Below the pieces are notes generated by a model that was given only the letters and a program-made list of their open reading frames with translations, did no database searches and was not told the DNA's origin. Shown here piece by piece: positions 3,241-33,618 of a stretch of 64,000 nucleotides of DNA; within the stretch, counting starts at the first letter, position 1, and each line of letters begins with the position of its first letter. The position numbers and the translations under genes are program-made. The stretch is from Haemophilus parainfluenzae (GTDB lineage Bacteria; Pseudomonadota; Gammaproteobacteria; Enterobacterales; Pasteurellaceae): NCBI RefSeq assembly GCF_036288925.1, contig NZ_CP127167.1, positions 868,001-932,000 on the forward strand, read 5' to 3'.

Positions 3241-4484
3241 GATTCTGCCTTTTGTTGTGTTCGTATTGCGGCATAAAATACAATCGTTAAGAAAAAGTAA
3301 AAAATAGTACCCGAGTTATGGGTTAGGAAACCTTGGCTCAAGCCATAGATCATCACAGATAAAATATGGGCAATACCTAAAGTGGCAATCAGCTTGATTT
3401 CATTATTCGTGGTTTTCAGACCTTTCATAAAGGCAAGTAGAGGAATCAATAACACAGCGAGCAAGGCGAGTAGTCCAACTATTCCTCGTTTTGAGAGGTC
3501 GTCTAAATATTGATTATGGGCATGCGTAAATTGTCCAATGTCACCCGTGACAATTTTTTCTTTCGTATCTAACTTACGCTTTTCTGTCGCCCCTTGAATG
3601 CCCCAGCCAAATAAAGGCTTTTCTTTTGCCATTTCAAGTGCACTTTTCCACATTTCAAAACGCGCACCTAGAGAAGTATTGCCATCATTATTATCCAAGT
3701 AAAGTTGGATATCTTTTCGTGCAACGTCAATCCGTTCCATAATTCGGTTATTGGGCATTTGGCTAATGCCAACGCTTGCTACGGCAATGATTCCAAAGAA
3801 AGTCAGGAAAAAACGTTTCGAAAGAGAATGGCGATAGATATAAAGGATAACAATAAGTAAGATAGGTAATGTCACCCATCCTCCACGAGCAGTGGAAAGT
3901 AAACTTCCTATGATGCCACATAAACCACCAATAACACTAAGAGCGGTTAATTTTATGTCTTTTTTCTGATGGGCATAGAGGGCAATAACTAGGCTAAAAA
4001 TACCTAATGACATAGAAATGTCACCACCTTGAATATGCATAATTCGAGGATTTTGCTCTGGGCGTAAATTCAACATAAATTTATCATAAAGTGCAACACA
4101 GGTGGAACTCATTCCACCAAGAGGAATCGCATAATTCAAAACGCAAGTTTTGATTGGGTATTTTAACAATAAAAACAAGATAGGAATTAAGAAAACTACT
4201 CGACTTGCCGTATCGATATCGCGCATTTTCCCTCCATGAATGAAGAGGGAAAAAATAAATGTAAAGAAATAAAAAAGGTAACTATAAATTAACCATTTGT
4301 CCACTTTTGATAAGTTTAATAGTGTTCTCTTGATTAAACTATAAATGCCATAACCTAAACTGATTAACATCAGTAAAACTGGTGCTGCATTATACCCACC
4401 CTTGACAATAAAAATAGAAAGAAAGAATAGTGTTACCGCAAAATTTATGATGGTGGGTAACCAATTTTGTTTTGTTATGTACAT
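3237..4484 (-). CDS. O-antigen ligase (WaaL)-family membrane protein
   Basis: A 415-residue polytopic inner-membrane protein with about ten hydrophobic segments and one long periplasmic loop. The loop region carries LGARFEMWKSALEMAKEKPL (about 277-296) and then FTHAHNQYLDDLSKRG (about 328-343), typical of the Wzy_C/O-antigen ligase domain, where the Arg and the HAHN His act in glycan transfer. It would join a glycan to lipid A-core or polymerise a glycan in the periplasm. It is first in a two-gene operon with the GT9 gene. A uptake-signal hairpin 40 bp upstream separates it from the Slam island. Ligase and polymerase cannot be told apart by sequence alone. Confidence 0.8.
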   Translation of the reverse strand: MYITKQNWLPTIINFAVTLFFLSIFIVKGGYNAAPVLLMLISLGYGIYSLIKRTLLNLSKVDKWLIYSYLFYFFTFIFSLFIHGGKMRDIDTASRVVFLIPILFLLLKYPIKTCVLNYAIPLGGMSSTCVALYDKFMLNLRPEQNPRIMHIQGGDISMSLGIFSLVIALYAHQKKDIKLTALSVIGGLCGIIGSLLSTARGGWVTLPILLIVILYIYRHSLSKRFFLTFFGIIAVASVGISQMPNNRIMERIDVARKDIQLYLDNNDGNTSLGARFEMWKSALEMAKEKPLFGWGIQGATEKRKLDTKEKIVTGDIGQFTHAHNQYLDDLSKRGIVGLLALLAVLLIPLLAFMKGLKTTNNEIKLIATLGIAHILSVMIYGLSQGFLTHNSGTIFYFFLTIVFYAAIRTQQKAES

Positions 4485-4523
4485 AGATAATGGCCGATAT
4501 TTTGGGGGAGATTACATTAAAAA

Positions 4524-4546
4524 ACCGCACTAGAAAGTGCGGTCTT
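4524..4546 (-). terminator. Uptake-signal inverted pair terminator
   Basis: ACCGCACT (4524-4531) and AGTGCGGT (4536-4543) form an eight-bp stem with a four-base loop. On the minus strand it is followed by six Ts. It lies next to the left fba fragment, so it may be the original terminator of fba from before the island was inserted. It now ends the transcript of the Slam gene. Confidence 0.75.
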
Positions 4547-4564
4547 ATTTTAGTCTATTTTTAT

Positions 4565-4637
4565 GGATTATAAAACATCAACGCAGTTTAAGTCTTCGAA
4601 AGATTGTTCTAAGCGTTTAGAGGGAGATTCCTCCATT
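4565..4637 (-). repeat. Left copy of the fba 3' end (direct repeat)
   Basis: Bases 4565-4620 are identical to 7575-7630, which are the last 17-18 codons plus stop of fba. The similarity goes on for 17 more bases with 13 matches and then ends. The fragment still reads as the fba tail (MEESPSKRL... to DVL-stop), with Pro where the intact gene has Met. It has no start of its own and is a remnant. With the second copy it brackets the Slam island in the manner of an attachment-site or recombination duplication. Confidence 0.9.
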
Positions 4638-4750
4638 GTCTCTCCAGATAAATGATTGTAGGTAGTACTTAAATAGCAATAGAAATTATTCATGAAAGCC
4701 AGTTAATTATCTGGTATAAACTTTTACCTTATTTTTATTAAGATGTTTTA

Positions 4751-6106
4751 CTAAAAACTCTTTTCAAAAATCAGATTAATATTCTTCTGTTGATAAGAAT
4801 ACATTTGAGGAATGTTACTTATTTGCTTTTTCCAAATAAACTGTAGTTTAGGTGTAATTCCCTCCAAATGCCAATCTCGTTTCCAAACTAATAAATTTAG
4901 AGAATAAATATGATCTTTACGGTTTTTATTAAAGGAGAAAATATCTAAATTACCTAATTTAGCAACATCTTTATAATTTCGTTTAATAAATGACACGGCT
5001 ATTTGTGAAGATATTCCTTTTCCCCAGTCTTGTCCCCAACCTAAACGTAGGCCTTTGCTTTTAGAACCATATTGCCTTACTTGAGTTTTTTCATTTATCC
5101 AGTCACCTCCAATATAGAAAAATTGTCGAGTGTTTGGCTGAAAAATTAAGGTTGATGTAAGCTGTGTTAGATGTCCATTAAGCTCTTTTTCAATAAAATA
5201 ATGTTGTTTTTCAAATTCAGCAGAATAAGATAGTTGCCAATGTGGGTTAAAGTGAAAATCATATTCAACTTGCACACCATTATTCCAGCGATAACGATGG
5301 TTGCCATACCAACGACGCTCATAAAAAGGTTTCACTTTTATTATATGAGATGCATTTTTATAGGCATAACCTAAAAAAGTGCGGTTTAAAATATCATCAT
5401 ATTCATGATTATCCCAATACTCTTTACCCCAAGCTCGATTGCCGAATAAAAAATAGTGAGAATCGAATAAATTCAAATCTCGAGAAACCGAGAAAAAATA
5501 TCCAACTCCATGGGCTGATTGTGGCAACATTTTTGGGGATTTGGTCAGTACTGCACGATTAGACAATGGCACATAATTGACATTTGCTGCATGGTTGACA
5601 TTTTTATCTCGGATATAATGAGCTGCAAAATCTATCTCCCAACTTTGTCTCTTATCTAATGCTTGCAGATAATTATTAATAACCAACAACGAACCATCAG
5701 GTAGATCTTTTTCCACTTTTGCTTTTTCAAATTGAGTTCTTGCTGCACTATCTTGCCTTTGATGAAATAATGCAATCGCTAACTCGATTCTAACTGGGTT
5801 TAATTCTGGGTTTTCCGATAAGACTTGTCGATAAAGCCGAATTGCTTCGTAATAATCTTGTTCTAAAAAGGCAATACGCCCTTGTGCAAATTGAGCTAAA
5901 TGTTTATTGAAATGAGGATTATATTGATACAGATCTATTAATCGGGCCAGTTCTTTTCCAGATAAAGAATATATATTTTCGGATAATAGTTTTTCAATCA
6001 TTTTAGGATTACTTTGAAGATATGTTATATCTGGTAACGATAATGTGTGAGCAGTCGCAGAAAATGAAAAAGATGAGTAGAATAGCCAAAATAACGCTTT
6101 TTTCAT
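4751..6106 (-). CDS. Slam-family surface lipoprotein assembly modulator (outer membrane)
   Basis: A 451-residue protein with a signal peptide (cleavage near residue 20, SATAHT), a helical tetratricopeptide-like region (about 25-150, including EQDYYEAIRLYRQVLSENPE) and a C-terminal beta-barrel of alternating aromatic strands that ends in Phe, as outer membrane proteins do. This order, signal peptide then TPR then DUF560 barrel, defines Slam proteins, which move lipoproteins or hemophores to the cell surface. The lipoprotein gene directly upstream is the obvious client. AGGTG lies before the ATG. The gap of 54 bp to the lipoprotein gene holds a hairpin. The function is inferred from family and pairing. 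Confidence 0.85.
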   Translation of the reverse strand: MKKALFWLFYSSFSFSATAHTLSLPDITYLQSNPKMIEKLLSENIYSLSGKELARLIDLYQYNPHFNKHLAQFAQGRIAFLEQDYYEAIRLYRQVLSENPELNPVRIELAIALFHQRQDSAARTQFEKAKVEKDLPDGSLLVINNYLQALDKRQSWEIDFAAHYIRDKNVNHAANVNYVPLSNRAVLTKSPKMLPQSAHGVGYFFSVSRDLNLFDSHYFLFGNRAWGKEYWDNHEYDDILNRTFLGYAYKNASHIIKVKPFYERRWYGNHRYRWNNGVQVEYDFHFNPHWQLSYSAEFEKQHYFIEKELNGHLTQLTSTLIFQPNTRQFFYIGGDWINEKTQVRQYGSKSKGLRLGWGQDWGKGISSQIAVSFIKRNYKDVAKLGNLDIFSFNKNRKDHIYSLNLLVWKRDWHLEGITPKLQFIWKKQISNIPQMYSYQQKNINLIFEKSF

Positions 6107-6120
6107 ATTACACCTAATAA

Positions 6121-6144
6121 AATAGGCGGAATAACCCGCCTATT
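6121..6144 (-). terminator. Intercistronic hairpin between lipoprotein and Slam genes
   Basis: AATAGGCGG (6121-6129) pairs perfectly with CCGCCTATT (6136-6144) around a six-base loop. On the minus strand it is followed by TTATTAGG, a weak U-tract. It probably lets only part of the transcripts continue into the Slam gene, giving more cargo than translocon. Confidence 0.6.
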
Positions 6145-6160
6145 AACATATAAAAATAAA

Positions 6161-6775
6161 TTAACGATAGCCACCAAAAGAAGTATTTAATGCTGAATTA
6201 TTATCAAAAGTTACAATACCAGCAGCTTCTTCGGCATTTGGCCCATATAATGCACCTGTATATTTACCACCGTCATTCAAGAATACACTAGCTTTACCAC
6301 TAAAACTATTACCATTTAAACTAGTTTCATGCAGAGTAATATCACGAGCAAGTGGCATCTCAATTTTTCCATCAACTTTTTTAGTATCAAAATTTACATT
6401 AAGAGTGGTTTTTCCATCTGCTTGTACGCCATTAATATTTTGAGCAATGATACTATCTCTTGCACGCACTGCATGCCCCGTATAAGTTGCAGAGCCTTTT
6501 GGAATACTTGAAGTTGGTGTTACTGTACCTTGATAACGAATTTCTTGGCGAGTTTTATCGTGATTCACCCACACACCGTAAAATGAATGATTTTGGTTAT
6601 AACCAATTAGTGTTCCATCCATCGTATTACCGCCAGTTAGTCCTTTGTCACTATTATTTAAATCAAATTTTGTACCATCTGGTGTTTGTGCAGTACCAGA
6701 ACCACCACCAGAACCACAAGCGACAGCTAAGGCTGATAATCCTAAAATAGCAACATTATTTAATTGTTTTAACAT
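6161..6775 (-). CDS. Slam-dependent surface lipoprotein, TbpB-like barrel domain
   Basis: A 204-residue lipoprotein precursor. The signal peptide ends in the lipobox ALAVAC with the lipidated Cys at residue 20, followed by a Gly/Ser-rich linker (GSGGGSG). The C-terminal half has the strands of the eight-stranded barrel shared by TbpB lobes, factor H-binding protein and hemophilin-like hemophores: FSGKASVFLNDGGKYTGALY, the GPNAEEAAG motif and the end SFGGYR. It would be displayed on the cell surface by the adjacent Slam. The ligand (haem, metal carrier or host protein) cannot be told. GAGGAAA precedes the ATG. It is first in a two-gene operon behind its own promoter. Confidence 0.82.
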   Translation of the reverse strand: MLKQLNNVAILGLSALAVACGSGGGSGTAQTPDGTKFDLNNSDKGLTGGNTMDGTLIGYNQNHSFYGVWVNHDKTRQEIRYQGTVTPTSSIPKGSATYTGHAVRARDSIIAQNINGVQADGKTTLNVNFDTKKVDGKIEMPLARDITLHETSLNGNSFSGKASVFLNDGGKYTGALYGPNAEEAAGIVTFDNNSALNTSFGGYR

Positions 6776-6820
6776 AACGATTTCCTCATTTTTTCTTAGT
6801 TAGAAAGATTAACTTTAATT

Positions 6821-6849
6821 CTAATAGGAAACTAGACTCTATATCTCAA
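6821..6849 (-). promoter_or_regulatory. Sigma-70-type promoter of the surface lipoprotein gene
   Basis: On the minus strand TTGAGA (6844-6849) and TATTAG (6821-6826) are 17 bp apart and lie 46 bp upstream of the lipoprotein start. Both hexamers are close to consensus. The -35 box overlaps the palindrome at 6847-6860. Confidence 0.55.
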
Positions 6850-6860
6850 CTGTCCAGTTG
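6847..6860. promoter_or_regulatory. Candidate operator of the CI/Cro-like regulator
   Basis: CAACTG-TC-CAGTTG is a perfect 14-bp palindrome midway between the divergent lipoprotein and regulator genes. It overlaps the lipoprotein -35 box and lies 45-58 bp upstream of the regulator's -10. Size and symmetry fit a dimeric helix-turn-helix repressor. Binding is inferred. Confidence 0.5.
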
Positions 6861-6904
6861 TTAATTTAAAAATCATTTGGTGAATTTATTATTTGGGTTA
6901 TCGT

Positions 6905-6910
6905 TATAAT
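6905..6910 (+). promoter_or_regulatory. -10 box giving a likely leaderless regulator mRNA
   Basis: A perfect TATAAT ends six bases before the regulator's ATG at 6917, so the usual start point of transcription would be the A of the ATG itself. There is no Shine-Dalgarno sequence in the short gap. No good -35 hexamer is seen at 16-18 bp, so an activator or a different start is possible. Confidence 0.5.
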
Positions 6911-6916
6911 TATTAA

Positions 6917-7294
6917 ATGCAGAAAATATTTGATGAAAAAGCACTTTTTAGCCAACGGTTACGAGTTGCTCTTGAAGCCGCTTCTTACGGTACATTTAAA
7001 GTATCAGACATTGAGAGGGAATTTAACTTACGTTATGTTTCAGGGTCTGTCACACCCCAAGCAATTTATAAATGGCTAAATGGTCAATCAATCCCTTCTT
7101 TTGACAAAATCCAAGTACTTGCCGATTGGTTAAATGTTTCTGCAGAATGGTTAAAGACCGGGGCAAGTAATACCACTTTAAATGCACAATCACTTATTGA
7201 AAAACAAGGTTTAGAGAGTTTCCTTCAATTAAATAATGAGCATAAGTATTTAATTCTCAATTTGATGCAAGCACTTCTTAGAACCTACCCATAG
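6917..7294 (+). CDS. CI/Cro-type (XRE) helix-turn-helix regulator
   Basis: A 125-residue protein with one DNA-binding domain in its N-terminal half: SVTPQAIYKWLNGQSIPSFD (about 44-63) is the helix-turn-helix, followed by KIQVLADWLNVSAEWLKTG, the usual last helices of small XRE repressors. The C-terminal 40 residues are helical and may dimerise. It is divergent from the lipoprotein-Slam pair and probably controls it and itself through the palindrome at 6847-6860. The absence of a ribosome binding site and the position of the -10 box suggest leaderless translation, as for lambda cI. It could be a phage-derived regulator retained in the island. Targets are inferred. Confidence 0.75.
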   Translation: MQKIFDEKALFSQRLRVALEAASYGTFKVSDIEREFNLRYVSGSVTPQAIYKWLNGQSIPSFDKIQVLADWLNVSAEWLKTGASNTTLNAQSLIEKQGLESFLQLNNEHKYLILNLMQALLRTYP

Positions 7295-7524
7295 CCTCAT
7301 CTCCTTGTGTTAAGAAACTATATTTAAAAATAAAAGAATCAATAAAATACTTGCTATAATCAAGCTATCTTTATAGGTTCCATTAAATTTATTTTCTGTT
7401 AAACAATAAAAATAAAGACATGATAAAAATAATATTGTGTATTAGTTAGTAGAATTCAATATAGAAGCGTTAATCCATTACTGATATTTAATAAATTCGA
7501 AGATTAATTCCTAAATTAAAATAA

Positions 7525-7553
7525 AAGGCTAAATTCTATTAGAATTTAGCCTT
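7525..7553 (-). terminator. Terminator of fba (island copy)
   Basis: A perfect 12-bp stem (7525-7536 with 7542-7553) and five-base loop, followed on the minus strand by TTTTATTTT. It lies 25 bp beyond the fba stop. The 230 bases between the regulator stop (7294) and this hairpin are very AT-rich and hold no gene that I can support. Confidence 0.85.
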
Positions 7554-7574
7554 AATATTTAAATATAATTTACA

Positions 7575-7647
7575 GGATTATAAAACATCAACGCAGTTTA
7601 AGTCTTCGAAAGATTGTTCTAAGCGTTTAGACATAGATTCTTCCATT
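7575..7647 (-). repeat. Right copy of the fba 3' end (in the intact gene)
   Basis: This is the end of the intact fba gene; its first 56 bases are identical to 4565-4620. See the left copy. The two define the borders of a 3-kb segment carrying the Slam pair and its regulator. Confidence 0.9.
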
Positions 7648-8657
7648 TTACGTAACCAAACACGTGGATCGTAGTATTTTTTGTTTGGCGCATCTGGGCC
7701 TTCTGGGTTACCTAATTGACCTTGAAGATAAGCTTCATTTGCTTTATAGAAGTTCAAAATACCATTCCAAGATGCCCATTGAGTATCTGTATCAATGTTC
7801 ATTTTGATTGCACCATAACTAATTGCTTCACGGATTTCTTCGCGACTAGAACCCGAACCACCGTGGAAAACGAAGTTAATTGGTTTAGCAGGAAGGTTGC
7901 GTTCTTTTGCAACGAACTCTTGTGATGCACCTAAAATAGATGGTTTTAATTTTACGTTACCTGGTTTGTAAACACCGTGTACGTTACCGAATGCTGCTGC
8001 AACGGTAAAGTTAGGGCTTACAGGGTTTAATTGGTCGTAAACATAAAGCACATCAGATGGTTGAGTATATAAACGAGATTCATCGACATCTGAGTTATCT
8101 ACGCCATCTTCTTCACCACCGGTAATACCGATTTCGATTTCAAGGGTCATACCTAACTTGTCCATACGAGCAAGGTATTCACGGCAGATTGCCATGTTTT
8201 CTTCCATTGGCTCTTCAGATAAGTCAAGCATGTGAGAAGAGAATAATGGACGACCAGTTTCTGCAAAGTGTTTCTCACCCGCTTCAAGTAAGCCATCGAT
8301 CCATGGAAGTAATTTTTTCGCCGCGTGGTCAGTATGAAGAATAACGGGTACACCATATTCTTTGGCTAAAGTATGAACGTGTTTCGCACCTGCGATCGCA
8401 CCTAAAACATCTGGACGTGCCCCGGTGGTTGGTTTGATACCTTTACCTGCGTAGAAAGCTGCACCACCGTTTGAGAATTGGATAATTACTGGCGCTTTTA
8501 CATGTGCAGCGGTTTCCAATACCGCATTTACGGAGTCAGAGCCCACGCAGTTCACTGCAGGGATTGCGAAGTTGTTTGCTTTGGCATAAGCAAAGATTTT
8601 TTGTACATCTTCACCTGTTACTACACCTGGTTTTACGATATCTAATAATTTAGCCAT
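7578..8657 (-). CDS. fba: Fructose-bisphosphate aldolase, class II
   Basis: A 359-residue zinc aldolase of the class IIA type that splits fructose 1,6-bisphosphate into dihydroxyacetone phosphate and glyceraldehyde 3-phosphate in glycolysis and the reverse in gluconeogenesis. Visible family signatures are ILHTDHAAKKLLPWIDG with the zinc-binding His, EIEIGITGGEEDGVDNS, AAFGNVHGVYKPGNV and NFVFHGGSGS. Length equals that of E. coli FbaA. It is the second gene after pgk (92-bp gap with a hairpin) and probably shares the pgk promoter. The last 56 bp including the stop are duplicated at the far side of the Slam island. Confidence 0.97.
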   Translation of the reverse strand: MAKLLDIVKPGVVTGEDVQKIFAYAKANNFAIPAVNCVGSDSVNAVLETAAHVKAPVIIQFSNGGAAFYAGKGIKPTTGARPDVLGAIAGAKHVHTLAKEYGVPVILHTDHAAKKLLPWIDGLLEAGEKHFAETGRPLFSSHMLDLSEEPMEENMAICREYLARMDKLGMTLEIEIGITGGEEDGVDNSDVDESRLYTQPSDVLYVYDQLNPVSPNFTVAAAFGNVHGVYKPGNVKLKPSILGASQEFVAKERNLPAKPINFVFHGGSGSSREEIREAISYGAIKMNIDTDTQWASWNGILNFYKANEAYLQGQLGNPEGPDAPNKKYYDPRVWLRKMEESMSKRLEQSFEDLNCVDVL

Positions 8658-8749: not shown

Positions 8750-9910
8750 TTAACCGTTCGCACGTTTTTCAAGAATTTCTACTGCTGGTAATACTTTACC
8801 TTCAACGAATTCTAAGAATGCACCGCCACCGGTAGAGATATAAGAGATTTTATCTGCAATACCGAATAAATCGATAGCTGCTAAAGTATCACCGCCACCT
8901 GCGATAGAGAATGCATCGCTGTTTGCAATCGAGTGAGAAATGATTTCAGTCCCTTTACGGAAGTTAGGGAATTCAAACACGCCAACTGGGCCATTCCATA
9001 AAATGGTTTTTGCATTTTTGATGATTTCAGCTAATTGTTTAGCAGATTTATCACCGATATCGAAGATAGATTCGTCATCTTTTACTTCAGTCACTGATTT
9101 TTCTGTTGCAGGTGCAGTTTCAGAGAATTCAGTACCAACACGTACATCAACCGGAACAGGAATATCTGTGCTTGCGGCTAATTCTTTTGCTACAGGGATT
9201 AAATCTGCTTCATATAATGATTTACCCACATTGTGGCCCGCTGCTGCAATGAACGTATTTGCAATACCACCACCCACGATAATTTGGTCAGCAATTTTTG
9301 AAAGAGAATTTAATACTTCTAATTTAGTGGAAACTTTAGAACCGCCTACGATCGCGACCATTGGACGAGCAGGTTCTTTTAGTGCTTTACCTAATGCATC
9401 TAACTCAGCCGCTAATAATGGACCTGCACAAGCAACCGGTGCAAACTCTGCTACGCCGTAAGTTGATGCTTGCGCACGGTGAGCCGTACCGAATGCATCC
9501 ATCACGAATACATCACAAAGTGCGGCATATTTTTTACCTAATTCAGGATCGTTTTTCTTCTCACCTTTGTTCACGCGAACGTTTTCTAAAACAACGATTT
9601 CGCCTTCTTTAACATCCACACCGTTTAAGTAGTCTTGCACTAAACGCACATTGAAACCTGCGTCTTTTAAGTAATCAACAACCGGTTGTAAAGAATCTTC
9701 AGGTTTGAATTCGCCTTCAGTTGGACGACCTAAGTGAGAGGTAACCATCACTTTTGCGCCTTTCTCTAAAGCCAGTTTTAACGTCGGGATAGTCGCACGA
9801 ATACGCGCATCAGATGTCACTTTGCCATCTTTTACCGGTACGTTTAAGTCTGCGCGAATAAATACACGTTTACCTTTTAAATCTAAGTCGGTCATTTTGA
9901 TTACTGACAT
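8750..9910 (-). CDS. pgk: Phosphoglycerate kinase
   Basis: A 386-residue cytosolic kinase that transfers phosphate from 1,3-bisphosphoglycerate to ADP. The N-terminal [11 protein letters not shown] signature (about 15-25), HLGRP, the central [12 protein letters not shown] and the late GGGDTLAA loop of the nucleotide site are all present, and the length matches E. coli Pgk (387). It heads a pgk-fba operon. A near-consensus promoter lies about 40 bp upstream of the ATG, with an inverted repeat in its spacer. GAGGAAAG precedes the start. Confidence 0.97.
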
Positions 9911-28072: not shown

Positions 28073-28835
28073 TTCACCGGTAATGACTGTAGAAGTATTA
28101 CGCTACAACCCAGAAAACGATCAAGAGCCACATTTAAGCTCTTATCAAGTACCTTATGATAACCAAACCTCTCTTTTAGATGCGTTAGGTTACATTAAAG
28201 ATAAACTTGAGCCGTCTCTTTCTTATCGTTGGTCTTGCCGTATGGCGATCTGCGGTTCTTGTGGGATGATGGTTAATAACAAACCAAAATTGGCTTGTAA
28301 AACGTTCTTACGTGATTACAGTGGCCACATGCGTATTGAACCATTGGCAAACTTTCCTATTGAACGCGACTTAGTGGTTGATTTAAGCCACTTTATCGAA
28401 AGTTTAGAGGCAATTAAACCTTATATTATTGGTAACGAAGCACCAGCATTAGATGGTAAACCACATCCATCGAAAGAATTGCAAGTAAGCCGTACTAAAC
28501 AAACTCCGGCACAGCTTGAAAAATATCGTCAATTCTCAATGTGTATTAACTGTGGTTTATGCTATGCGGCTTGTCCGCAATTTGGTTTAAATCCTGAATT
28601 CTTAGGCCCAGCAGCAATTACGATGGCACACCGTTACAACCTTGATAACCGTGACCATGGTAAAGCACAACGTATGCCATTATTAAATGGTAAAAACGGT
28701 GTTTGGAGCTGTACTTTCGTGGGTTATTGTTCTGAAGTGTGTCCAAAACACGTGGATCCGGCTTCTGCAATCAACCAAGGCAAAGTGGAAAGTGCCAAAG
28801 ATTATGTTATCTCAATGCTAAAACCAAAAGGCTAA
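28065..28835 (+). CDS. frdB: Fumarate reductase iron-sulfur subunit
   Basis: A 256-residue subunit with three clusters that pass electrons from quinol to FrdA: the [2Fe-2S] site [11 protein letters not shown] (about 57-67), the [4Fe-4S] site [12 protein letters not shown] and the [3Fe-4S] site [12 protein letters not shown]. The start is the ATG at 28065, with AAGGAG in the frdA coding sequence just upstream and the eight-base overlap with frdA; a longer open frame upstream is only read-through inside frdA. It is followed after ten bases by frdC. Confidence 0.96.
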
Positions 28836-28845
28836 GGGGAAGAAT

Positions 28846-29256
28846 ATGTCAGTAACAGTAAGTAAACGTAAAAAATATGTTCGCCCAATGACGGCTACTT
28901 GGTGGCAAAAATTGGATTTCTACAAAGCGTATATGGTGCGTGAAGCAACCTCTATCTTTGCTGTATGGTTCTGTATCGTATTGCTTTATGGCGTACTTTG
29001 CCTTGCAAGCAATCCTGTTCCAGGTCTAGGCATTATTGATTTCATCGGCTTCTTAAGAAATCCAATTGTGGTGTTCTTAAATATCATCACATTAATTGCG
29101 ACTTTATATCACACAGCAACTTATTTCGTGATGACACCAAAAGTGATGAACATCATTGTTAAAAATGAGCGTTTACCACATCACGTGTTAAGAAATGCAC
29201 TTTGGGCAGTTACAGCTGTGATTAGTGTTATCGCATTAATTTTAGTTTATATGTAG
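28846..29256 (+). CDS. frdC: Fumarate reductase membrane subunit C
   Basis: A 136-residue membrane anchor with three hydrophobic helices. The N-terminal [20 protein letters not shown] segment with the RPM motif is conserved in FrdC, and the Glu in the first helix ([11 protein letters not shown]) belongs to the quinone site in the E. coli enzyme. With FrdD it holds FrdAB on the inner face of the membrane and binds menaquinol. AAGGGGAAGA precedes the ATG. Confidence 0.94.
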
Positions 29257-29267
29257 GGAGAGAAAAA

Positions 29268-29612
29268 ATGGTCGAACAAAATCCAAAACGCTCTGGTGAA
29301 CCACCAGTATGGTTGATGTTTGGTGCTGGCGGGACTGTCAGTGCGATTTTCTTCCCTGTGGTAATCTTAATCCTTGGTTTATTGTTACCATTCGGATTAA
29401 TTGATCCACATAACTTAATTACATTCGCTTATTCTTGGATCGGAAAATTAGTTATCTTAGTTTTAACAATTTTCCCTATGTGGTGTGGTTTACACCGTAT
29501 CCATCATGCGATGCACGATCTTAAAATCCACGTGCCAGCAGGCGGATTTATCTTTTACGGTTTGGCAATGATTTACACAATTTGGGTGTTATTTGCTGTA
29601 TTAGGTTTGTAA
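29268..29612 (+). CDS. frdD: Fumarate reductase membrane subunit D
   Basis: A 114-residue membrane anchor with three hydrophobic helices, starting with the family's [20 protein letters not shown] and with [11 protein letters not shown] in the loop between helices 2 and 3. It completes the four-subunit fumarate reductase. AGGGAGAG precedes the ATG, 11 bases after frdC. A uptake-signal terminator follows. Confidence 0.94.
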
Positions 29613-29638
29613 TTTAAAACAACACTAAATGGATAAAT

Positions 29639-29673
29639 AAAAGTGCGGTCAAAAAAATGATCGCACTTTTTTT
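29639..29673 (+). terminator. Terminator of frdABCD, uptake-signal pair
   Basis: AAAAGTGCGGTC (29639-29650) and GATCGCACTTTT (29659-29670) form a stem with one G-U pair, followed by further Ts. Confidence 0.85.
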
Positions 29674-29718
29674 ATTCTTTAAGCATAACTAAAATATTTT
29701 CTTAATCCAGAAAAACAA

Positions 29719-29743
29719 AAAACCCGACATTACGTCGGGTTTT
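29719..29743 (-). terminator. Terminator of the rpsF-priB-rpsR-rplI operon
   Basis: AAAACCCGAC (29719-29728) and GTCGGGTTTT (29734-29743) with a five-base loop, 22 bases beyond the rplI stop. On the minus strand it is followed by TTGTTTTTC. Confidence 0.88.
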
Positions 29744-29765
29744 CTTTTATCAAAAACTTTGATAA

Positions 29766-30215
29766 TTATTCTGCAACAACGATAACATCTAATGTTGCAA
29801 ATACTTCACCGTGAAGTTGGAAACGAACATCGTGATCACCAAGAGTACGGATTGGACCATTTGGTAAACGAACTTCGCTTTTCGCAATTTCAACACCAGC
29901 TGCAGTTACGGCTTCTGCTACATCACGAGTAGTGATTGCGCCGAATAAACGACCTTCATCACCTGCTTTAGATGCGATGGTAACAGAACCTAATGCAGTC
30001 ACTTGTGCTGCACGAGCTTGAGCTGCTGCTAAACTTGCTGCTGCCGCTGCTTCTAACTCTGCACGACGTGCTTCAAAGTGTTCAATGTTAGCTTTAGTTG
30101 CCATAACTGCTTTACCTTGTGGGATTAAGAAGTTACGAGCGAAACCAGATTTAACATTAACTTGATCACCTACGTTACCTAGGTGAACGATTTTATCTAA
30201 AAGAATTACTTGCAT
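29766..30215 (-). CDS. rplI: 50S ribosomal protein L9
   Basis: The 149-residue L9 protein with the N-terminal rRNA-binding domain ([22 protein letters not shown], then [13 protein letters not shown]), a long exposed helix (about 40-75, Ala-rich) and the C-terminal lobe. It is last in the rpsF-priB-rpsR-rplI operon, 14 bases after rpsR, with AGGAG before the ATG. Confidence 0.97.
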
Positions 30216-30229
30216 TTCCTAACTCCTTC

Positions 30230-30784
<555 letters not shown>

Positions 30785-30798
<14 letters not shown>

Positions 30799-31162
30799 CC
30801 TCAAAATCGTTGTTTTCAACTTCAGCTAAAGGTTTACGTTCTTCTTTAGCCGCTTTCATTGGGGACGCTTCGGTTACGGCGTGCTTAGTATGGATAACAA
30901 GACTGCGTAATACAGCATCGTTATAACGGAAAGTCGTTTCTAGCTCGTCGATGACTTGTTGAGGCGCTTCTACATTCATAAGCACGTAATGTGCTTTGTG
31001 TAATTTGTTAATTGGGTACGCTAATTGACGACGACCCCAATCTTCTAGGCGATGAACTTGACCACCAGCTTCTTTAACAGAACCTGTGTAACGTTCGATC
31101 ATACCTGGTACTTGCTCGCTTTGGTCCGGATGAACCATAAACACGATTTCGTAGTGACGCAT
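30785..31162 (-). CDS. rpsF: 30S ribosomal protein S6
   Basis: The 125-residue S6 protein: [20 protein letters not shown] at the N-terminus, [14 protein letters not shown] and [10 protein letters not shown] in the centre, then an acidic tail ([10 protein letters not shown]) that can receive added glutamates in E. coli. It opens the rpsF-priB-rpsR-rplI operon. AAGGAG precedes the ATG. Its leader may hold the S6:S18 autoregulatory RNA known from other bacteria, but I could not confirm the fold by eye. Confidence 0.97.
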
Positions 31163-31309
31163 TACTGCTCCTTACGGGTTAATCAGCCTTTGACGTAGAC
31201 TAGCCACCAATCTGCAAAGGCAAGGAACGAAAAAATGAACGTGGCTAAGGATGCCGATTATACAGTTTTTTTTCTAGACTTCAAATCATTTGCATGCTTT
31301 TCAAACAAA

Positions 31310-31336
31310 AAAACCGATATTAACAACATCGGTTTT
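31310..31336 (-). terminator. Terminator of infA
   Basis: AAAACCGAT (31310-31318) and ATCGGTTTT (31328-31336), nine-base loop, 16 bases beyond the infA stop, followed on the minus strand by TTTGTTTG. Confidence 0.85.
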
Positions 31337-31352
31337 CTTTTTTATTTCTAAA

Positions 31353-31916
<564 letters not shown>

Positions 31917-32594
31917 ATGGCTATACCTAAAATAATTGTAATTAGTTTAAAACATTCAAAAAGAAGAGAAAATATTGCTAAACGCCTTTCCGGTTTGGGG
32001 TTGGACTTCAGTTTTTTTGATGCAACAGATGGGAAAAAACTATCCGCTTCTGTATTAGAATCTGTCGATTATGATTTCTATCCAAAACACTATTTATCAC
32101 CTAAGCCATTAACACTCGGCGAAATTGGTTGCGCAATGAGCCATATTAATGTTTATGAATATATTATAGAAAACAATATTGAAAGTGCTATTGTTCTTGA
32201 AGATGATGCTATAGTTTCACATTATTTTGAGGAAATTGTTCAGGATGCGTTAAATAAAGTTGGAAAAAAATATGATTTGATCTTTTTAGATCATGGTAAA
32301 GCCAAATCATATCTTTGTAAGAAAAAACTTTATGAAGGCTATCGACTTGTACATTATAAGTCTCCTTCGAAAAATTCTAAGCGGTTTATTACCTGTACTG
32401 CCGCATATTTAATTACACAATTGGGCGCTTCAAAATTGCTTAACTATGCTTATCCTGTACGAATGCCTTCAGACTACTTAACAGGACTTATTCAAAAAAA
32501 CAAAATGAATGCCTATGGAATCGAACCACCTTGTGTATTCAGAGGTTTGAGTATTGATTCTGAAATAAATCAAGTTGAAGAGCGATATGAATAA
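31917..32594 (+). CDS. Glycosyltransferase family 25 (LOS biosynthesis)
   Basis: A 225-residue GT25 enzyme of the kind that adds galactose or glucose to lipooligosaccharide in Haemophilus and Neisseria. It begins with the strand PKIIVISLKHSKRRENI, has LTLGEIGCAMSHINVYEYI (about 65-83) and the metal-binding IVLEDDAIV (92-100, the DxD-like LEDD), then CTAAYLITQLGASKLL. The sugar and linkage cannot be assigned. It is AT-rich compared with the ribosomal genes beside it. The stop overlaps the start of the next gene by eight bases. Unlike lic2A or lex2 it has no tetranucleotide repeat, so it is not a classic phase-variable gene. Confidence 0.85.
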   Translation: MAIPKIIVISLKHSKRRENIAKRLSGLGLDFSFFDATDGKKLSASVLESVDYDFYPKHYLSPKPLTLGEIGCAMSHINVYEYIIENNIESAIVLEDDAIVSHYFEEIVQDALNKVGKKYDLIFLDHGKAKSYLCKKKLYEGYRLVHYKSPSKNSKRFITCTAAYLITQLGASKLLNYAYPVRMPSDYLTGLIQKNKMNAYGIEPPCVFRGLSIDSEINQVEERYE

Positions 32595-33618
32595 GTTAAA
32601 AGCCCTAAGATTAAAAATAGGGAAATGGATACTCGATAAATCATCGAGAGTAAATAATCCCCAAAGTTTAGAACATCCTAAGAGTTTCTTATTTTTGCGA
32701 CAAGATGGGAAAATTGGCGACTATATCGTGAGCTCTTTTGTTTTTCGAGAGATAAAGAAATTTAATCCATTGATAAAAATTGGTGTTATCTGTACGAAAA
32801 AAAACGCTTATCTATTTCAAAAAAATAAAAATATTGATGAAATTTATACTGTAAAAAAAAGAAATATTTTAGACTATATTAAAAAGGGGCTATTAATTAG
32901 AAAAGAAAGATATGATGTTGTCATTGACCCAACCCTCATCATTAGAAATCGAGACTTGTTGCTCTTGAGGATAATCAATGCTCATAATTATATTGGCTAT
33001 CAAAAAGAAGATTATAATATTTTTAACGTAAATATTACTAAAGATAGCCATTTTTCAGAAATTTACAAAGAAGCTTTAGCTAAATCAAACATTAATTTAA
33101 GTGATGATAGCTATGATATTCCGCAAGATGACTTAATTAAAGAAGAAATTCTCCAGTTTATTACGGATAATAAGTTAAATAATTTTATTGCCATTAACTT
33201 TTATGGAAATGGGAAAAATAGAAAGTTTGATGATGCTCACATTATAGATTATTTAACATATATTAAAGACTTTTATAAGCATCAGTTAGTCTTGCTTGCA
33301 ACGCCGGATACTCATGAACATTTAAGTCGTATCGCTAATCAATTTAATGATGTGTTTGTTTATTCAAGTCATCATATAATGATCTATCATACTATTGAAT
33401 TAATTAGAAATTGCACACAACTTATTTCGGTTGATACATCCACCGTTCATATTGCTTCAGGGTTAAATAAAGCGATGATTTGTATTTATTCGCGAGACAA
33501 AGATAATTTTATACATTGGCATCCCAACTCCAAGAATGTGTGCCATATTCTGCATTACAACGATAATGTGAATGAGCTCTCCCCGAGAGAAATAAAACCA
33601 GAGTGGTTAGATATTTAA
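32587..33618 (+). CDS. Glycosyltransferase family 9-like protein
   Basis: A 343-residue heptosyltransferase-like protein. FLRQDGKIGDYIVSSFVFRE (about 33-52) is the GT9 N-terminal loop, and the C-terminal part has SVDTSTVHIASGLNKAMI (about 288-305), the second family motif. The middle is divergent and very rich in Lys, Asn and Ile. The ATG at 32587 has GAAGAG in front; a TTG at 32575 is in frame. It is coupled to the GT25 gene, and both lie between infA and rsmA, where they look inserted. It is quite different in sequence from the GT9 protein at 2212-3240. Confidence 0.8.
   Translation: MNKLKALRLKIGKWILDKSSRVNNPQSLEHPKSFLFLRQDGKIGDYIVSSFVFREIKKFNPLIKIGVICTKKNAYLFQKNKNIDEIYTVKKRNILDYIKKGLLIRKERYDVVIDPTLIIRNRDLLLLRIINAHNYIGYQKEDYNIFNVNITKDSHFSEIYKEALAKSNINLSDDSYDIPQDDLIKEEILQFITDNKLNNFIAINFYGNGKNRKFDDAHIIDYLTYIKDFYKHQLVLLATPDTHEHLSRIANQFNDVFVYSSHHIMIYHTIELIRNCTQLISVDTSTVHIASGLNKAMICIYSRDKDNFIHWHPNSKNVCHILHYNDNVNELSPREIKPEWLDI

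What the first reader, a model, noticed from the sequence alone, without database searches (positions are those of the whole stretch)
4565..7647. Slam island bounded by a 56-bp direct repeat of the fba 3' end
Bases 4565-4620 are identical to the last codons and stop of fba (7575-7630), and similarity goes on for another 17 bases. Between them lie a Slam translocon, its probable lipoprotein cargo and a CI/Cro-like regulator. This is the pattern of an element that entered the 3' end of fba and rebuilt it, like islands at gene ends, but no integrase is present. The left fragment keeps a Pro codon where the intact gene has Met, so one copy came from another fba allele. The uptake-signal terminator at 4524 may be the original fba terminator. 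A short surface-protein cassette placed in this way at a glycolytic gene is, as far as I know, undescribed.
Basis: partly seen in the sequence, partly recalled or inferred. Interest (0 to 1): 0.78.

Follow-up and report, generated by a model that had tools for sequence, protein, structure and literature searches.

The report
Slam cassette inserted at fba end
A 3-kb cassette for a surface lipoprotein and its exporter sits at the end of a sugar-metabolism gene in three Haemophilus species, between two copies of that gene's last bases, and appears to have spread between species without an integrase of its own.

Summary
The repeat is real: 4565-4620 equals 7575-7630 (56/56), 88% over 92 bp. The empty-site test succeeds: 10 of 10 other genomes of the genus, and 8 of 10 in a second Haemophilus genus, have one fba end followed by its terminator and wzy or a GT9 gene. 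Two genomes of the second genus, one named H. seminalis, carry the same island at the same place with a duplicated fba end. Island DNA is 98% identical across genera; fba is 91%, GT9 76%. So it is a horizontally acquired islet; the left fragment is the displaced native fba end with the native terminator. No integrase was seen, and the window's two repeat copies match the local, not the foreign, fba. Best reading: an integrase-less islet spread by homologous recombination, probably natural transformation. The 'other fba allele' is not supported. A second Slam cassette, between pta and rnd in two genus-mates, lies between duplicated uptake-signal terminators; a third, beside mgsA, has no duplication. 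New variant of a known kind; the origin of the first duplication is open.

The parts
4524..4543 (+). USS-type dyad terminator, originally that of fba; now follows Slam
   Evidence: follows fba directly in empty-site relatives
4565..4637 (-). left copy: displaced native 3' end of fba (4565-4620 exact repeat; inner edge altered)
   Evidence: 4301-4564 is 264/264 identical to empty-site genome G003
4751..6106 (-). Slam / type 11 secretion outer-membrane protein, 451 aa, full length
   Evidence: PF04575 over the whole profile, PF24575 TPR_Slam
6161..6775 (-). Slam-dependent surface lipoprotein, 204 aa, handle plus barrel
6847..6860 (.). candidate operator: palindrome CAACTG-tc-CAGTTG between regulator and lipoprotein
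   Evidence: arms kept in all three island copies; overlaps a weak promoter-like pair
6917..7294 (+). HTH_3 (CI/Cro-like) regulator, divergent from the lipoprotein gene
   Evidence: weak RstR similarity below cut-off
7525..7553 (-). island-borne terminator-like stem; now follows fba
   Evidence: shared by the three islands, absent from the empty sites printed
7575..7647 (-). right copy: 3' end of intact fba
7578..8657 (-). fba, class II fructose-bisphosphate aldolase, intact
   Evidence: NF006628, TIGR01520

Best explanation
A horizontally acquired islet (HTH regulator, surface lipoprotein, Slam exporter) of about 2.93 kb at the 3' end of fba. Shown: insertion at a site that is empty in relatives; displacement of fba's native end and terminator; intact fba; the same islet at the same site in two species of a second genus with about 98% identical DNA; window repeat copies that match the nearest empty relative. 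Inferred: it spreads as integrase-less DNA by natural transformation and RecA recombination. The strongly conserved fba end on one side, and its duplicate plus native downstream DNA on the other, are the homology arms; later exchange with island-free strains (or mismatch repair at entry) keeps the arms local. Recombination between the two copies would delete the islet and restore fba with its own terminator exactly, which would explain patchy occurrence. The first insertion, which made the duplication, was either an illegitimate event or the act of an integrase now lost. Function, inferred: Slam puts the lipoprotein on the cell surface, where its handle-and-barrel fold binds a host or nutrient ligand not yet known; the regulator probably represses the cassette from the palindrome.
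For: Empty sites: 10 of 10 genus-mates and 8 of 10 second-genus genomes. Carriers: 3 of 140 family genomes, all at fba with the end duplicated. Identity without gaps: island 98.0, 97.8 and 98.8%; fba 90.8% and GT9 75.6% for window vs H. seminalis. All 26 sites in the last 600 bp of fba where G003 differs from both other carriers are G003-type in the window, the nearest 18 bp from the island side; the left flank is 264/264 identical to empty G003. Around the island 2.48 kb holds 6 mismatches to G003, while the 47.5 kb compared averages 3.84% divergence, as expected of a recombination tract. With G005's pta end as query, H. seminalis scores 90% against 82-83% for the nine other genomes of its genus: exchange between the genera. 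Precedent: H. influenzae took up 1.2- and 2.7-kb insertions in transformation with donor runs of 8.1 +/- 4.5 kb (PMC3145789, passages).
Against: Local DNA within 18 bp on one side and some tens of bp on the other is much shorter than known transformation tracts and needs later homogenisation or an unseen closer donor. The three bases that tell the window's repeat from H. seminalis' are not fixed by genus: G008 has two of the H. seminalis bases, L097 one of the window's, and G071's fba shares the first with the window, so the typing rests on the nearest relative. Only one fixed genus difference lies in the last 600 bp for H. seminalis and G071. G071's two copies differ from each other (94%). 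The low-divergence block is not unique in the window (another at about 28.4-33.5 kb). The window's island edges differ from the other two at both ends (12 extra bases and CC/TA), which could mean a separate insertion; 69 gap columns separate the window's island from H. seminalis'. No excision product, transfer or expression was observed. Only one USS core lies in the island.
Confidence: 0.64

Rival explanations
1. Relic of an integrase-mediated island: a tyrosine recombinase used the fba end as attachment site, the element restored the gene, and the integrase was later lost or acts from elsewhere.
For: A direct repeat of a gene's 3' end with an intact gene is the classical footprint (classical pattern recalled); same site in two genera; weak RstR-like similarity of the regulator.
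Against: No ORF large enough for an integrase in the window's island (60 aa and more) or in H. seminalis' (100 aa and more); G071's is 98.8% identical to the latter. No duplicated fba end in 80 further loci. With one crossover point one copy should carry element-type bases, but both window copies match G003, with the caveat that those bases vary within genera. No fba attachment site in one paper search (listing only).
Confidence: 0.22
2. Independent insertions of the same cassette into fba in each lineage, each duplicating the host's own fba end.
For: Within the window and within H. seminalis the two copies agree with each other and not across; edges and repeat lengths differ between the genera.
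Against: No transposase that makes a duplication of about 70 bp is known to me (recalled), and none is encoded; H. seminalis and G071 share both edges; one insertion plus edge mutations explains the same.
Confidence: 0.12
3. Vertical inheritance: the cassette was ancestral and lost in most lineages.
For: Loss between the repeats would leave clean empty sites (inference).
Against: 98% island identity against 91% in fba and 76% in GT9 across the genera; 3 carriers of 140 genomes.
Confidence: 0.02

Closest known systems
Neisseria minimal mobile elements
   Same: Short cassettes without mobility genes between conserved genes in a naturally competent bacterium (definition partly recalled); a passage says they facilitate horizontal exchange of gene cassettes (PMC2649163).
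   Different: Here the cassette lies between two copies of the neighbour gene's 3' end, and no alternative cassette was seen between fba ends.
Genomic islands in gene 3' ends (integrase type)
   Same: Direct repeat of the gene end, gene kept intact.
   Different: No integrase; the window's two copies match the local fba.
Slam / type 11 secretion with Slam-dependent lipoprotein
   Same: Adjacent exporter and lipoprotein with C-terminal barrel, as in PmSLP (PMC10075479, PMC12080921; passages); a link of T11SS genes with mobile islands is already reported (PMC12282271; passages).
   Different: Compact 204-aa lipoprotein with a divergent HTH regulator; ligand unknown.

Membership tests
Slam / T11SS outer-membrane protein | SlipAM domain with Slam TPR domain | tested here: met
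   PF04575 293.7 bits over the whole profile, PF24575 85.6 bits
Slam / T11SS outer-membrane protein | Translocates its lipoprotein to the surface | not testable with these tools
   needs a display assay
Slam-dependent surface lipoprotein (NF041636) | Score above curated cut-off | tested here: met
   87.7 against 80 bits
Slam-dependent surface lipoprotein (NF041636) | Handle-and-barrel fold | tested here: met
Integrase-type genomic island at a gene 3' end | Direct repeat of the gene end, gene intact | tested here: met
Integrase-type genomic island at a gene 3' end | Own integrase | tested here: not met
   no ORF of that size besides the three genes in the window or in H. seminalis
Integrase-type genomic island at a gene 3' end | Excision as a circle | not testable with these tools
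   needs reads or PCR
Minimal mobile element | Cassette without mobility genes between conserved genes (definition partly recalled) | tested here: met
Minimal mobile element | Alternative cassettes at the same site | tested here: inconclusive
   only this cassette seen in 21 genomes of two genera (3 filled, 18 empty), but one genome per species
Minimal mobile element | Exchange through homologous flanks | tested here: inconclusive
   recombination block around the site, but such blocks occur elsewhere too
RstR phage repressor (NF041951) | Score above curated cut-off | tested here: not met
   27 against 80 bits

The most novel reading that the evidence does not exclude
Slam-lipoprotein cassettes of Haemophilus are a class of integrase-less mobile cassettes that settle at the 3' ends or terminators of housekeeping genes (fba, pta) and are held between duplicated gene-end DNA. 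The duplicate serves as homology arm for entry by transformation and for scarless loss, so surface antigens can be gained and dropped at fixed neutral sites.
Probability: 0.27. Interest if true: 0.66.

Novelty: new variant of a known kind. Interest (0 to 1): 0.5.

Why it matters
It gives a bounded case of a surface-antigen cassette crossing genera of Haemophilus, with exact empty sites and a repeat that would make scarless gain and loss possible. A second site (pta-rnd) with a similar layout makes the question general and testable: do competent bacteria keep duplicated gene ends as docking sites for surface proteins?

Tried and rejected
Other fba allele as source of the left copy: rejected, Met in 80 of 80. 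Longer ancient duplication: rejected, shuffle level. fba end as family-wide hotspot: not seen in 80 loci (in one search some loci were read in the wrong orientation and the scan was redone). That scan gave two weak partial matches to the fba end (24 bp in G120, inside wzy, and 29 bp in G035, both 83%), which I judged not to be duplications; an insert longer than about 5 kb would have been missed. Two loci have a lipoprotein hit downstream of fba: G080 (40%, behind three other genes, no Slam beside it) and G022 (26%, beside a large putative receptor gene); neither lies between two fba ends. Same operator in cassettes of G098, G135, G059: palindrome not found. Gene-end duplication as a rule for all Slam cassettes: rejected; the mgsA-site cassette of G077 has none, and among the other Slam-type loci only uptake-signal-like pairs (G055, 29 bp; G016, 74 bp at 80%) and a 25-bp match (G115) appeared. 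A control on how alike uptake-signal dyads are in general failed: ended in errors (their printed parts are used), and the window holds one strict dyad, so the pta duplication rests on the empty sites. Four of eight second-genus empty loci lacked the exact anchor (all eight are shown); two were dropped. PmSLP does not appear among the matches or the 50 shown rows; that is no evidence of difference.

Full report
Observation. The repeat is as described: 56 of 56 bases between 4565-4620 and 7575-7630, and 88% over 92 bases. In the whole 2.23-Mb genome only these two places match the left copy. Between them lie a Slam gene, a Slam-dependent lipoprotein gene and a divergent HTH regulator; the other ORFs of 60 aa or more there are 60-96 aa, too short for a mobility gene.

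Empty sites. The window's genome is one of 11 in its genus here. In the other 10, fba is followed at once by a USS-type terminator and then wzy (9) or GT9 (1, L025). In a second genus (g19) 8 of 10 genomes are empty, fba being followed by the terminator and GT9. I fetched 80 fba loci outside the window's genus (these 8 and 72 more; 47 further genomes of the 140 were not fetched). Of them 41 have wzy next, 8 GT9 and 31 another neighbour, and none has a duplicated fba end within about 5 kb, apart from two short 83% matches that I do not count. The left fragment, its terminator and wzy in the window are therefore the original end of the fba locus, pushed aside; 264 of 264 bases next to the repeat equal the empty genome G003.

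Other carriers. A DNA search of 140 Pasteurellaceae genomes finds the whole island in three: the window, G077 and G071. G077 matches Haemophilus seminalis SZY H1 (L017, title) by contig coordinates. Both are at fba with the end duplicated: 67 bp at 100% in H. seminalis and at 94% in G071, whose fragment has gathered changes.

Transfer. Island identity without gaps is 98.0% (window-H. seminalis), 97.8% (window-G071) and 98.8% (H. seminalis-G071); the lipoprotein gene is 612/612 identical between the latter two. fba is 90.8, 91.0 and 97.1%, GT9 75.6, 76.1 and 92.9%, pgk 90.2, 90.8 and 95.3%. The island is thus younger than the split of its hosts. It is also poorer in G+C (0.32 against 0.39 for the window).

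Whose repeat? The window's two copies agree with each other and with empty G003; H. seminalis' two copies agree with each other; the pairs differ at three bases. Those bases are not fixed by genus: G008 has two of the H. seminalis bases, L097 one of the window's, and G071's fba the first of the window's. In the last 600 bp of fba, all 26 sites where G003 differs from both other carriers are G003-type in the window, the closest 18 bp from the island side. A simple carried-in gene end would be expected to leave element-type bases in one copy. Around the island 2.48 kb holds six mismatches to G003, with 5-6% divergence just outside on the left and about 3% on the right. That looks like a recombination tract, though another such block lies at about 28.4-33.5 kb, so it is support and not proof.

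Edges. The window differs from the two others at both edges: twelve extra bases and altered bases at the left, CC for TA at the right.

A second site. In the same genus G005 and G006 carry a different Slam (54 and 53% aa identity to the window's) between pta and rnd, in G005 with a 586-aa cargo. It is flanked by two copies of the terminator (56 bp, 89 and 91%). Eight genomes of the genus, the window's own included, have one copy and no cassette; G009 is unresolved. Here the left copies vary with the host while the right copies are the same in the two carriers, which suggests entry through a shared terminator. At a third site, beside mgsA in G077 (G068 altered too; empty in the other 8 of 10 genomes of that genus), there is no duplication. 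So the layout recurs but is not a rule.

Verdict. A real, recently transferred surface-protein islet with a gene-end duplication and no integrase. Spread by homologous recombination is best supported; how the first duplication arose is not known. No paper describing a Slam cassette at fba was found in the listings; horizontal acquisition of T11SS genes as such is already in print (PMC12282271, passages).

Noticed in passing
L104:5295-5350 and 8977-9032; L105:3411-3466 and 7140-7195: Second Slam cassette between pta and rnd in two genus-mates, flanked by duplicated uptake-signal terminators; site empty in eight genomes of the genus, the window's own included.
   Followed up: partly
L106:4245-8037; L264: Third polymorphic Slam site between a DUF945-like gene and mgsA (names recalled from the sequence, not scanned) in G077, with G068 altered too, without duplication; the longest Slam ORF in L106 covers only part of the gene.
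   Followed up: partly
L247: The pta end of H. seminalis (G077) is 90% identical to that of G005, where nine congeners show 82-83%: likely inter-genus recombination. G009 of the window's genus also shows only 83%.
   Followed up: no
L228:5475-6581; L235:2085-5294; L236:5812-7500: The same regulator family lies divergent beside a Slam-type lipoprotein gene in three other genera.
   Followed up: partly
window 28400-33500: Five-kb stretch nearly identical to G003 in a region that averages 3.84% divergence: another recombination block.
   Followed up: no
L025: One genus-mate (G002) lacks wzy here, with fba followed directly by GT9, as in the second genus.
   Followed up: no
L129:2195-3178: In G080 a 327-aa lipoprotein related to the cargo (40%) lies behind three other genes downstream of fba, with no Slam beside it.
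   Followed up: partly
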